DNA from: Psychrobacter arcticus 273-4
GTDB lineage: Bacteria > Pseudomonadota > Gammaproteobacteria > Pseudomonadales > Moraxellaceae
NCBI RefSeq assembly: GCF_000012305.1
Contig: NC_007204.1
Coordinates: 744,001-808,000 of the forward strand
DNA: 64,000 nt
Direction: 5' to 3'
Positions 1,683-62,575 of the stretch are shown in pieces. The notes under the pieces are model-generated. The model saw only the letters and a list, made by a program, of their open reading frames with translations, had not been told where the DNA came from and ran no database searches. The number at the start of each line of letters is the position of its first letter. Positions within the stretch are counted from its first letter, which is position 1. The position numbers were made by a program, and so were the translations under genes.

Positions 1683-1820
1683 TATAGTCGGTGAAAAGTA
1701 ATATCGATACAACAGGTACTACTGGTGCAAATTTTTCTTGCTTGCTGTGCCTACGCAGACAGAGGCGGCAAAAAATTTACACCAGCAATACGGTAGCGAC
1801 TTTAAAGTATTTCAACTATA
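1683..1820 (+). repeat. Family A palindromic element, copy A1
   Basis: 138 bp with TATAGTCG at the left and CAACTATA at the right. Internal stem arms CTGGTGCAAATTTTT and AAAAATTTACACCAG have one mismatch and surround the conserved core GCTGTGCCTACGCAGACAG. Near-identical to copies A4, A5, A6, A11, A12 and A13. This copy reads GAGGCGGC where most read GAGGCTGC. It lies in the 800-bp gene-free stretch between phoH and ubiH; outside A1 and A2 I see nothing recognisable there. Inferred to be a non-autonomous mobile element. Confidence 0.9.
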
Positions 1821-1976: not shown

Positions 1977-2121
1977 TATAGTGAGTTTTAAGTGAAAGAA
2001 ATACAAACATTATAACGTGCTACTGGTATTAATTTTTCTTGCTTGCTGTGCCTACGCAGACAGAGGCTGCGAATAATTAATTCCAGTAGCACTGTATTCT
2101 TTTAAAGGTGCATCTACTATA
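1977..2121 (+). repeat. Family A palindromic element, copy A2 (divergent arms)
   Basis: 145 bp, starting TATAGTGAG and ending CTACTATA. It shares the constant core CTTGCTGTGCCTACGCAGAC but has different stem arms: GTGCTACTGG pairs perfectly with CCAGTAGCAC, and ATTAATT pairs with AATTAAT. It is closest to copy A15. It ends about 110 bases before ubiH and may affect that gene's leader. Confidence 0.85.
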
Positions 2122-3575: not shown

Positions 3576-3710
3576 TATAGTCGATTTAATTTAAAAACGA
3601 TGCAGTGCTAATAATATAAATTTTTCTGGTGTGCTGTGCCTGCGCAGACAGAGGCTGCAAAAAATTCATTCCAGTCCCGCTGTATCGTTTTTTATACTGG
3701 GCTTACTATA
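3576..3710 (+). repeat. Family A palindromic element, copy A3 (decayed stem)
   Basis: 135 bp, TATAGTCG to CTTACTATA, with the core GCTGTGCCTGCGCAGACAG (one change in the core). The left arm (GTGCTAATAATATAAATT) no longer pairs well with the right arm (AATTCATTCCAGTCCCGC), so this looks like an older copy. Its left arm reappears upstream of wza (A7). It fills most of the ubiH-ubiI gap. Confidence 0.8.
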
Positions 3711-11720: not shown

Positions 11721-11858
11721 TATAGTCGGTGAAAAGTAATATCGATACAACACGTACTACTGGTGCAAATTTTTCTTGCTTGCTGTGCCTACGCAGACAG
11801 AGGCTGCAAAAAATTTACACCAGCAATACGGTAGCGACTTTAAAGTATTTCAACTATA
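11721..11858 (+). repeat. Family A palindromic element, copy A4
   Basis: 138 bp, TATAGTCGG to CAACTATA, almost identical to A1. Its right end lies only 16 bases before the GTG start of marC, so the leader of marC is largely the element. The rest of the nadC-marC gap holds nothing I recognise apart from the palindrome after nadC. Confidence 0.92.
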
Positions 11859-22034: not shown

Positions 22035-22172
22035 TATAGTTGAAATACTTTAAAGTCGCTACAGTATTGCTGGTGTAAATTTTTTGCAGCCTCTGTCTGC
22101 GTAGGCACAGCAAGCAAGAAAAATTTGCACCAGTAGTACGTGTTGTATCGATATTACTTTTCACCGACTATA
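22035..22172 (-). repeat. Family A palindromic element, copy A5
   Basis: 138 bp, inverted relative to A1 and A4, close to identical (TATAGTTGAAATAC at the left, CACCGACTATA at the right). It lies between the third IS and the rluB terminator. Confidence 0.92.
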
Positions 22173-23424: not shown

Positions 23425-23562
23425 TATAGTTGAAATACTTTAAAGTCGCTACAGTATTACTGGTGTAAATTTTTTGCAGCCTCTGTCTGCGTAGGCACAG
23501 CAAGCAAGAAAAATTTGCACCAATAGTACGTGTTGTATCGATATTACTTTTCACCGACTATA
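23425..23562 (-). repeat. Family A palindromic element, copy A6
   Basis: 138 bp, same orientation as A5, one arm change (CACCAATAG instead of CACCAGTAG). It lies in the 600-bp gene-free region between rluB and wza; the parts outside A6 and A7 hold no recognised feature and must include the capsule and rluB promoters. Confidence 0.92.
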
Positions 23563-29176: not shown

Positions 29177-29308
29177 TACGCGACTCTCAACTTAATATGG
29201 GCTATCGTAGGCTGGCGCTTTTAGCCCAGTTAATCGTAACAATTTGCCAAAAACGCTGGGCTAAAGCCACAGCCTACGCCAAAAATTATGATAGTTGAGA
29301 GTAGGGTA
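29177..29308 (+). repeat. Family B palindromic element, copy B1
   Basis: 132 bp. Ends TACGCGACTCTCAACT and AGTTGAGAGTAGGGTA are inverted repeats with two mismatches; the inner 10 bases pair perfectly. Inside, GTAGGCTGGCGCTTTTAGCC and CTGGGCTAAAGCCACAGCC give a long imperfect stem. B2 at 51799-51930 differs by one base inside. TA at both outer ends suggests a TA target. Confidence 0.9.
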
Positions 29309-29339
29309 GTCCATATAATAAGCAATTAGGAAAATCAGA

Positions 29340-30374
29340 ATGATACAGACACAGACAGTCTATGAACAAATTAAGCAAACACTGGCAAATGAGCCAAAAA
29401 CATGGCTCATTACAGGGGTTGCGGGTTTCATAGGATCTAATCTATTAGAAACTTTATTATTGCTAAATCAAAAAGTAGTGGGTTTAGATAATTTCGCGAC
29501 TGGGTTTCAACATAATTTAGATGAAGTCCAAAGCTTAGTGAGCGCGCAACAATGGCAAGGCTTTACTTTTATAGAAGGTGATATACGTAACTTAGCAGAT
29601 TGCCAAGCGGCGTGTATTGGTATCGATTATGTCTTGCACCAAGCAGCGCTAGGTTCGGTCCCACGCTCTATCGCTGATCCTATTAATACTAATGAGACTA
29701 ATATTTCAGGCTTTTTAAATATGCTGACCGCAGCACGTGATGCAAAGGTCGCTAGCTTTACTTATGCGGCTAGTAGCTCAACGTATGGTGATCATCCTGC
29801 ATTACCCAAGGTCGAGGATGCCATTGGTAAGCCTTTATCACCCTATGCAGTGACTAAATATGTCAATGAGCTATATGCCGATGTATTTGCTCGTACCTAT
29901 GACTTCAATACGATTGGTCTACGTTATTTCAATATATTTGGCAAACGCCAAACGCCAGATGGTGCTTATGCCGCAGTGATACCTAAATGGACGGCGGCTA
30001 TGATAGCTGGTGATGCGGTCTATATCAATGGTGATGGTGATACCAGTCGAGACTTTAACTTTATTGAGAATGCGGTACAAGCTAATATTTTGTCGGCGAC
30101 TGCTACGGATGAAGCTAAAAACGAGGTGTATAACGTGGCAGTGGGTGGTCGTACAACGCTCAATACACTATTTACGGCGCTACACGAGAATCTAGCCCTC
30201 AATGGGGTGAATTATACTCAAGAAGCAGTATATCGAGATTTTAGAGCAGGAGATGTGCGTCATAGTCAGGCTGATATTAGTAAAATACAGAACGCATTAG
30301 GCTATGCACCGCAGTTTGATATTGTTCAGGGTATTGAGAAAGCTATGCCTTGGTATGTTAAGTTTTTAGGTTGA
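29340..30374 (+). CDS. tviC: UDP-N-acetylglucosamine (uronate) 4-epimerase, TviC/WbpP family
   Basis: Extended SDR enzyme, 344 residues: NAD motif [12 protein letters not shown] near residue 26, catalytic Ser in AASSSTYGD and YxxxK in YAVTKYVNE, and [19 protein letters not shown] typical of the WbpP/TviC branch. Interconverts UDP-GlcNAc(A) and UDP-GalNAc(A). The 175-bp gap after tviB is filled by element B1. AGGA before ATG. Confidence 0.88.
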
Positions 30375-51798: not shown

Positions 51799-51930
51799 TA
51801 CGCGACTCTCAACTTAATATGGGCTATCGTAGGCTGGCGCTTTTAGCCCAGTCAATCGTAACAATTTGCCAAAAACGCTGGGCTAAAGCCACAGCCTACG
51901 CCAAAAATTATGATAGTTGAGAGTGGGGTA
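51799..51930 (+). repeat. Family B palindromic element, copy B2
   Basis: 132 bp, same orientation as B1 and one internal base different (CAGTCAATCG instead of CAGTTAATCG). Ends TACGCGACTCTCAACT and AGTTGAGAGTGGGGTA. It fills the front half of the gap between the GT4 and the sugar-phosphate transferase. Confidence 0.9.
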
Positions 51931-52076
51931 TCTTTTATAGTTTTCCGTTTTTTTATAGCACTTCCTTTATCTAAATTGCCAACCTACTACAATAGTACAG
52001 TTTTTTACACTCTCAATAAGTTATATTTGCTAAATTTCCAAATGTACTTTGTATCTACGAATGAAAGACTCTAATT

Positions 52077-54862: not shown

Positions 54863-55008
54863 TATAGTAAATTCATTATAAAAACGAGTCAGCAGGACTG
54901 GAATAAATTTTTCGCAGCCTCTGTCTGCGTAGGCACAGCACGCCAGAAAAATTTATACCAGTTCAGCGTTGCAATATAATGTATCTTTTTTATTTAGATT
55001 TGACTATA
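54863..55008 (-). repeat. Family A palindromic element, copy A9 (divergent arms)
   Basis: 146 bp, TATAGTAAA to TTTGACTATA. Core GCCTCTGTCTGCGTAGGC as in A5; arms GACTGGAATAAATTTTTC and GAAAAATTTATACCAGTTC pair with one mismatch and differ from the common type. Begins 5 bases after the wzi stop. Confidence 0.87.
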
Positions 55009-55038
55009 TTTAGTCAGTTTACGATAGCACTTGAACAC

Positions 55039-55077
55039 AAAAAGTCGGTCTATTAACTACTAATAGACCGACTTTTT
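55039..55077 (+). terminator. Strong terminator closing the capsule locus
   Basis: Perfect 17-base arms beginning AAAAAGTCGGTCTATTA with loop ACTAC and a U-run, 182 bases after wzi. Symmetric, so it may also work on the other strand. Confidence 0.92.
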
Positions 55078-55166
55078 TATGGTCATGTTATTGTTTTTTA
55101 ATTAAGGTGTTCTCATCTCACGCTAGGATTTTTCAGCCTACACAGGTACAATATCAGTCTTAATAA

Positions 55167-55313
55167 TATAGTCGATTAAATTTAGAAAGAATATAGTGCT
55201 GCTGGGATAAATGTTGCGAAGCCTCTGGAGTGCGAAGCGCACAGCAAGCGAGGAAAATTTATCCCAGCAGAACGCTGTTTTGAAGGTATCTCTTTTATAT
55301 TAATATGACTATA
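55167..55313 (-). repeat. Family A palindromic element, copy A10 (most divergent)
   Basis: 147 bp, TATAGTCGAT to ATGACTATA. The core has changed to GCCTCTGGAGTGCGAAGCGC yet keeps its ends (GCCTCTG and GCACAGCAAGC). Arms CTGCTGGGATAAAT and ATTTATCCCAGCAG pair perfectly although their sequence differs from all other copies. Confidence 0.85.
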
Positions 55314-55345
55314 TATTGACCGAGCATAAGACAGGCATGCAAAGA

Positions 55346-55483
55346 TATAGTTGAAATACTTTAAAGTCGCTACCGTATTGCTGGTGTAAATTTTTTGCAG
55401 CCTCTGTCTGCGTAGGCACAGCAAGCAAGAAAAATTTGCACCAGTAGTACGTGTTGTATCGATATTATTTTTCACCGACTATA
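55346..55483 (-). repeat. Family A palindromic element, copy A11
   Basis: 138 bp of the common type, 49 bases before the folD ATG. Third family A copy within 620 bases between wzi and folD; the remainder of that gap holds only the terminator. Confidence 0.92.
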
Positions 55484-56427: not shown

Positions 56428-56570
56428 TATAGTTGCAATACTTTAAAGTCGCTACCGTATTGCTGGTGTAAATTTTTTGCAGCCTCTGTCTGCGTAGGCA
56501 CAGCAAGCAAGAAAAACTTGCACCAGTAGTACGTGTTGTGTTGTATCGATATTACTTTTCACCGACTATA
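56428..56570 (-). repeat. Family A palindromic element, copy A12
   Basis: 143 bp of the common type with a 5-base duplication (GTGTT) in the right arm. Begins 8 bases after the folD stop and lies just before the shared terminator. Confidence 0.92.
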
Positions 56571-58384: not shown

Positions 58385-58522
58385 TATAGTGGAAATACTT
58401 TAAAGTCGCTACCGTATTGCTGGTGTAAATTTTTTGCAGCCTCTGTCTGCGTAGGCACAGCAAGCAAGAAAAATTTGCACCAGTAGTACGTGTTGTGTTG
58501 ATATTACTTTTCACCGACTATA
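58385..58522 (-). repeat. Family A palindromic element, copy A13
   Basis: 138 bp of the common type (left end TATAGTGGAAATAC). It lies between the divergent DUF2237 gene and hisZ. Confidence 0.92.
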
Positions 58523-62430: not shown

Positions 62431-62575
62431 TATAGTCAGTCCTAAGTAAAAGAAATACAGATGTTATAAAGCACTACTGGGGTTAATTTTTCTTGCTTGC
62501 TGTGCCTACGCAGACAGAGGCTGCGAATAATTAACCCCAGTAGCGCTGCACTCTTTTAAAAGTGGATCAATTATA
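62431..62575 (+). repeat. Family A palindromic element, copy A15 (divergent arms)
   Basis: 145 bp, TATAGTCAG to AATTATA. Same core as A2 but arms CTACTGGGGTTAATT and AATTAACCCCAGTAG, which pair perfectly. Its right end has lost the usual CTATA. The remaining 200 bases to rlmN hold no recognised feature. Confidence 0.87.

What the first reader, a model, noticed from the sequence alone, without database searches (positions are those of the whole stretch)
54863..55483. Family A: palindromic elements with covarying stems and a near-constant core
Twelve or thirteen full copies and several partial ones occur in this window alone, all intergenic. Across copies the sequence next to CTGG changes (TGCAAA, TATTAA, GGTTAA, AATAAA, GATAAA) and the opposite arm usually changes to match (for example GGTTAA with TTAACC in A15, GATAAA with TTTATC in A10), while the core GCAGACAGAGGC is mostly fixed. 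Compensatory change plus a fixed loop is what selection on a folded RNA, or on hairpin DNA recognised by a transposase, would leave. Three copies of different subtypes sit in this interval. I know of no described family that I can name for it.
Basis: partly seen in the sequence, partly recalled or inferred. Interest (0 to 1): 0.75.

Follow-up and report, generated by a model that had tools for sequence, protein, structure and literature searches.

The report
Psychrobacter miniature transposon with covarying hairpin
A short non-coding repeat, whose core occurs about 360 times in this bacterial genome and lies between genes in nearly every copy examined, carries end sequences like those of a known class of jumping gene (IS630) and is therefore likely a miniature transposon moved by it, while a sister repeat in the same bacteria aligns end to end with the long-puzzling Correia repeat of Neisseria.

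Summary
The CTGG...CCAG stem with its fixed core is the middle of a longer unit, TATAGT...ACTATA, usually 138 bp. The core occurs 359 times in the genome (at most 1 mismatch; reversed control 2). In 464 kb examined, 77 of 93 cores lie between exact ends and 91 of 92 modules are intergenic. Ten clean empty sites in other Psychrobacter loci keep two bases, nine of them TA or one transition away. Its ends resemble those of IS630-family elements of the genus (transposase domain in 84 of 105 genomes); this genome keeps three partial matches. I file it as an IS630-type MITE. The arms covary between lineages (13 of 16 pairs changed on both sides), but close relatives differ mostly on one side (109 of 120 changed pairs), orientation to genes is 24:24, and full matching of the six variable pairs is rare (6 of 35 clusters). 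That fits a hairpin kept in mobile source copies better than an RNA kept at each locus. A 105-108 bp sister family in Psychrobacter and one more Moraxellaceae genus aligns end to end with the Neisseria Correia element, whose mobiliser was reported undetermined; IS630 is my prediction.

The parts
54863..55008 (-). family A element, 146 bp; core 54917-54928
55167..55313 (-). family A variant with a different core (GCGCTTCGCAC), 147 bp; a second TATAGT lies inside at 55192
55346..55483 (-). family A element, 138 bp; core 55400-55411; empty site in L050 (P. glacincola)
1683..1820 (+). family A element, 138 bp
1977..2121 (+). family A element, 145 bp
3576..3710 (+). family A element, 135 bp
11721..11858 (+). 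family A element, 138 bp
22035..22172 (-). family A element, 138 bp
23425..23562 (-). family A element, 138 bp
56428..56570 (-). family A element, 143 bp
58385..58522 (-). family A element, 138 bp
62510..62521 (+). core of a twelfth element; exact TATAGT upstream, no exact ACTATA downstream

Best explanation
Family A is a non-coding repeat of usually 138 bp with TATAGT...ACTATA ends, absent cleanly from matching places in other Psychrobacter, and is likely a miniature transposon (MITE) moved in trans by IS630-family transposases whose terminal repeats its ends resemble. Shown here: the ends, the lengths, the empty sites, the genus-wide spread and the similarity of its ends to IS630 ends. Inferred: an IS630 transposase would bind the outer 30 bp or so at each end, excise the element and join it into a TA dinucleotide, duplicating the TA. 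Inferred: the burst in this genome came before its IS630 decayed to the three partial matches now seen. Inferred: the palindromic middle would be kept, or re-made by template switching, in the few copies that seed new insertions, while inserted copies decay one arm at a time; this would give covariation between lineages but little between close relatives.
For: 77 of 93 cores between exact ends, 60 of them at 138 bp; 60 copies of 138 bp, median 2 differences from consensus; 10 clean empty sites with exactly two bases, TA 4, CA 3, TG 2, GA 1; MITE ends agree with the nearest IS630 end at 17.2 of 26 positions against 11.9 for shuffles, 84 of 122 distinct ends above all 50 of their own shuffles; 24 of 30 genus IS630 loci have TATAGT ends 880-925 bp apart; full transposases carry DDE_3 and HTH_Tnp_IS630; model R1 in 95 of 105 genus genomes, in 1 of 108 sampled genomes of other genera of the family; nearest-neighbour differences one-sided in 109 of 120 changed pairs; orientation 24:24.
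Against: No transposition was observed. The dominant subtype matches IS ends less well (18 and 16 of 26) than rare subtypes, and 38 of 122 ends do not exceed their shuffles. Only 4 of 10 empty sites read TA and 18 of 28 spanning alignments were not clean. This genome has no intact IS630 match. The middle is not derived from the IS630 interior (core in 0 of 24 IS), so its origin is open. The lean of mismatches to G-U on one strand is not explained.
Confidence: 0.9

Rival explanations
1. A dispersed structured RNA element (an mRNA processing or stability signal, as reported for RNase III sites in Correia transcripts) kept by selection on the folded RNA at each locus.
For: Both-sided changes in 13 of 16 pairs; mismatches favour G-U on the strand opposite the core, 21 clusters against 5 with 16 ties; the middle alone folds better on that strand in 21 of 35, p 0.04.
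Against: Orientation between tandem genes 24:24; 109 of 120 changed pairs between nearest neighbours are one-sided; full-element fold energy 25 of 41, p 0.18; no Rfam match; clean empty sites show insertion.
Confidence: 0.08
2. The apparent covariation comes only from recombination between a few fixed subtypes.
For: Arms look mosaic: a common TATNAATT 5' arm meets many 3' arms; full matching of the variable pairs is rare.
Against: Re-dealing the 3' letters among 35 sequences lowers standard pairs from 84.1 to 74.7% and both-sided cells from 48 to 13.2; slid partners give 7-14. Free exchange of arms would lower pairing.
Confidence: 0.15
3. A REP/REPIN family spread by a RAYT (Y1) transposase.
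For: The genome has one Y1_Tnp gene; family A is palindromic and intergenic.
Against: The Y1 gene is flanked by other palindromes tagged GTAG (GTAGGCTGCGGCTTTAGCCCAGC), with no family A core in the 3.3-kb locus; family A has TATAGT ends and a two-base target.
Confidence: 0.02

Closest known systems
Correia element / CREE / NEMIS (Neisseria)
   Same: TATAG ends, TA target, over 100 copies per genome, intergenic, hairpin transcripts (PMC2649163, PMC5039591, PMC10969869: passages seen). The 105-108 bp sister family aligns with it end to end.
   Different: Family A is usually 138 bp with a different middle; homology of its core to the Correia core is not shown (most comparisons near chance, best z 4.2 for the variant copy).
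RUP (Streptococcus pneumoniae) with IS630-Spn1
   Same: A 107-bp repeat whose ends resemble an IS630 element, TA targets, proposed trans mobilisation (PMC2229807, PMC3049150: passages seen).
   Different: Other host phylum; RUP sequence was not compared here.
MITEAba12 (Moraxellaceae)
   Same: MITE of the same bacterial family, 111-114 bp (PMC6382973, abstract and passages seen).
   Different: Moved by ISAba12 with 9-bp target duplications; not IS630.
REP/REPIN with RAYT
   Same: Palindromic intergenic repeats; this genome has such a set.
   Different: That set is a separate repeat.

Membership tests
MITE of the IS630 family | Short, non-coding, fixed inverted-repeat ends | tested here: met
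   77 of 93 cores between exact TATAGT/ACTATA; 60 at 138 bp
MITE of the IS630 family | TA target with 2-bp duplication | tested here: met
   10 clean empty sites keep two bases; TA 4, one transition from TA 5, GA 1
MITE of the IS630 family | Ends shared with an autonomous IS630 element of the same organisms | tested here: met
   17.2 against 11.9 of 26; 84 of 122 ends above own shuffles; same genus, not the same genome
MITE of the IS630 family | Mobilised by that transposase | not testable with these tools
   needs a transposition assay
Correia element (CREE) | 26-bp Correia repeat ends TATAG[CT]GGATTAA... | tested here: not met
   family A ends are TATAGTCaGTgaaAAg... and TATAGT.AAaatAcT...
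Correia element (CREE) | Correia core | tested here: inconclusive
   family A middle near chance in most comparisons, variant copy z up to 4.2; the 108-bp sister family does align
REP/REPIN | RAYT gene flanked by the repeat; GTAG or CGTC tag | tested here: not met
   the one Y1 gene is flanked by other palindromes
Structured regulatory RNA | Covariation with strand-specific constraint in place | tested here: inconclusive
   covariation yes; orientation and full-element energy no; mismatch classes lean to one strand

The most novel reading that the evidence does not exclude
Family A, the 105-108 bp repeats of Psychrobacter and Moraxella, and the Correia elements of Neisseria are branches of one MITE superfamily driven by IS630 transposases, so the undetermined mobiliser of the Correia element, known since 1988, is an IS630-family enzyme; and the covarying stem is renewed in source copies by a DNA-level process.
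Probability: 0.45. Interest if true: 0.72.

Novelty: new member of a known kind. Interest (0 to 1): 0.5.

Why it matters
It explains a very frequent repeat of Psychrobacter genomes and shows how stem covariation can arise in a transposon without a host RNA function at each locus, a caution for covariance-based RNA discovery. The sister family makes the question of what moves Correia elements testable outside Neisseria, since matching IS630-like elements occur in the same genus of cold-water bacteria.

Tried and rejected
Rfam scan of the window: no match at gathering scores. REP/RAYT: rejected. Derivation of the middle from the IS630 interior: exact 8-mer of the core absent in 24 of 24 IS. Finding a Neisseria genome by its uptake sequence (motif recalled) in a class sample: no genome with more than 6 matches among 369, so no Neisseria IS630 was examined. 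IS630 ends in the second genus (g10): 28 loci fetched; only L281 passed my filter, and its 'ends' run on like nearby Correia-like repeats (my reading of the letters), so that comparison, which would have favoured my reading, is dropped. With the cleaner IS ends, Neisseria ends of the AAATTTAAA type match above chance (1 and 4 of 500 shuffles reach it), those of the AACAAAAA type do not (121 and 323 of 500), and four Moraxella-type ends do not (104 to 293 of 500). Transposase against PDB sequences: none at E 0.001. Family A against plasmids: none. Relatives of the transposase in phage records: 5 partial, distant matches. Counts per genome are capped at 50 or 35; one search scored at most 5 candidates per genome.

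Rows dropped: 261 cores to 209 for the stem analysis, 52 lacking a recognisable module or stem ends. Alignment A1 holds 34 of the 35 representatives (one left out by oversight when typing) plus the variant copy. 93 to 92 own cores. 18 of 28 spanning alignments failed my junction filter. 6 of 30 IS loci had no paired ends, and the pair chosen for L155 is doubtful. The 89 of 92 count of both ends allows one mismatch per 6-mer, so some ends may be chance; exact ends are 77 of 93. The end-pair scan alone gave 97 pairs against 38 for two permuted end pairs.

Literature: ten searches, listings only partly shown where many papers matched. Among the listed titles, abstracts and the passages opened I saw none that describes this repeat, Correia-like elements outside Neisseria, or an IS630 mobiliser for Correia; most subscription papers are not held. 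No paper was read whole. RepRanger (PMC12306157, one table row seen) lists Psychrobacter arcticus with a last figure of 1,017; the column heading was not seen and it is not known whether family A is counted.

Full report
Observation. The window is part of a 2,650,701-bp single-contig genome. That length is the one I recall for Psychrobacter arcticus 273-4; no call names it. The core GCAGACAGAGGC occurs 359 times at up to one mismatch, the reversed control twice.

Anatomy. I examined 464 kb (window plus 20 stretches of 20 kb), 17.5% of the genome; 17 of the stretches or so were chosen around cores already listed, so density there is not a genome average. Of 93 cores at up to one mismatch, 77 lie between exact TATAGT and ACTATA, 60 of them at exactly 138 bp. 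One of the 93 is not a module; of the other 92, 89 have both ends with one mismatch allowed in each and 3 have one. The 60 copies of 138 bp differ from their consensus by a median of 2 and at most 5 bases; the commonest sequence occurs 10 times. The finding's interval is exactly three neighbouring elements: 54863-55008, 55167-55313 and 55346-55483, between a Wzi-like gene and a folate dehydrogenase/cyclohydrolase gene.

Insertion. Joined flanks of 206 elements were compared with 1.85 Mb of loci then held: 28 alignments span the junction and 10 are free of gaps there with at least 8 of 12 identical bases on each side. These ten keep two bases between the flanks: TA 4, CA 3, TG 2, GA 1. Identity over these alignments is 77-89%, and CA and TG are one transition from TA. 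The copy at 55346-55483 is absent at the matching place in P. glacincola (L050). This shows insertion and fits a 2-bp TA target duplication.

Source of the ends. The IS630 transposase domain PF13358 is found in 84 of 105 genomes of the genus. Of 30 loci fetched, 24 have TATAGT ends 880-925 bp apart around it (L155 doubtful); two full transposases carry DDE_3 and HTH_Tnp_IS630. Consensus of 48 IS ends: TATAGTcAat.ca..ATAAAA..GaTACA; of the MITE ends: TATAGTCaGTgaaAAgTAAtAtcGATACA and TATAGT.AAaatAcT.TAAAAAcGcTACa. Beyond the six terminal bases, MITE ends agree with their nearest IS end at 17.2 of 26 positions on average, shuffles at 11.9; 84 of 122 distinct ends exceed all 50 of their own shuffles, 38 do not. 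Rarer subtypes match best (22 of 26), the dominant one 18 and 16. This genome retains three partial IS630 matches, one followed by an ACTATA end. IS630 copies on plasmids of Moraxella osloensis, Acinetobacter indicus and a Psychrobacter have TATAGT ends too (889, 890 and 915 bp).

Distribution. A covariance model of the middle (R1) matches 95 of 105 genus genomes (at most 50 candidates scored per genome). In a family sample of 149 genomes it matches 39: 38 of 41 from the same genus and 1 of 108 others, with a single match.

Covariation. From 261 cores, 209 have a recognisable stem; these are 107 distinct sequences in 35 clusters. On 34 of the 35 representatives plus the variant copy, 84.1% of cells form standard pairs against 74.7% in shuffles, 13 of 16 pairs have a both-sided change, and there are 48 both-sided cells against 13.2 in shuffles and 7-14 with slid partners. 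Shuffles ignore relatedness; the slid control keeps it. Yet all six variable pairs are Watson-Crick in only 6 of 35 clusters and 20 of 209 copies. Between nearest neighbours (at most 6 differences; 138 distinct modules in an enlarged set), 109 of 120 changed pairs changed on one side and 11 on both, 8 of these from one Watson-Crick pair to another. I infer that inserted copies decay freely while the lineages that spread stay palindromic, so that the stem matters, or is re-made, in source copies. Template switching within the palindrome is one possible way; it is not tested.

RNA test. Of 48 copies between genes in tandem, 24 have the core in sense and 24 in antisense (my own ORF calls). Over 41 full-length representatives the opposite strand folds better in 25, p 0.18; for the middle alone in 21 of 35, p 0.04. 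Mismatches lean to G-U on the opposite strand: A-C/G-U counts 27/7 in 35 clusters, and in 42 clusters 21 against 5 with 16 ties, p 0.0025; leaving out two columns it is 18 against 8 cells. This asymmetry is unexplained; shared ancestry of a few columns may cause it.

REP rival. The genome has one Y1 transposase match, flanked by GTAG-tagged palindromes and not by family A.

Correia link. A 108-bp repeat in this genome (three matches, one of them cut short) with TATAGT/ACTATA ends has relatives in 31 of 149 family genomes, 24 of the same genus and 7 of one other. A copy related to that of the other genus lies on a plasmid of M. osloensis at 82%. Correia elements were read from IMG/VR contigs (17 core matches, 13 with both ends). 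One of them (L186) was tested against 9 Psychrobacter and 3 Moraxella-type copies: the best pairs score z 14.1 and 12.9, and none of 200 shuffles reaches the score in the six comparisons printed; the alignments run end to end. Those contigs are unnamed; they carry the published Correia ends (PMC5039591, passages), and a related contig, L185, carries the Neisseria uptake sequence (motif recalled). Four of four Psychrobacter Correia-like ends tested match IS630 ends (0-2 of 500 shuffles), two of four Neisseria ends do (1 and 4 of 500), none of four Moraxella-type ends does. Family A's own middle is not shown to be homologous to the Correia core. That an IS630 enzyme moves Correia elements is thus a prediction.

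Known kinds. Snyder et al. (PMC2649163, passages) give TATAG[CT]GGATTAA ends, TA targets (some CA) and an undetermined mobilising mechanism for CREE. [quoted passage not shown] Family A works like RUP and is filed as a new IS630-type MITE family; it fails the end-sequence test for a Correia element proper.

Noticed in passing
window 29241-29350 and 51863-51972: Two copies of a palindromic repeat (GCTGGGCTAAAGCCACAGCCTAC) that is also found beside the genome's single Y1 (RAYT-type) transposase gene in L311; likely this genome's REP family.
   Followed up: partly
L134:17696-17803 (also L152, L153, L154): A 108-bp Correia-like repeat, three matches in this genome, with TATAGT/ACTATA ends.
   Followed up: yes
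G186 (L217, L281): A genome of another Moraxellaceae genus gave 212 first-look candidates for the Correia-like repeat, only 5 of which were scored; possibly a large expansion.
   Followed up: no
family A stem, all loci: A-C mismatches outnumber G-U on the core strand (27 to 7), i.e. G-U is favoured on the other strand; no explanation found.
   Followed up: partly
window 55182-55475 (-): An open reading frame of about 97 codons built almost wholly from two adjacent elements; likely spurious.
   Followed up: no
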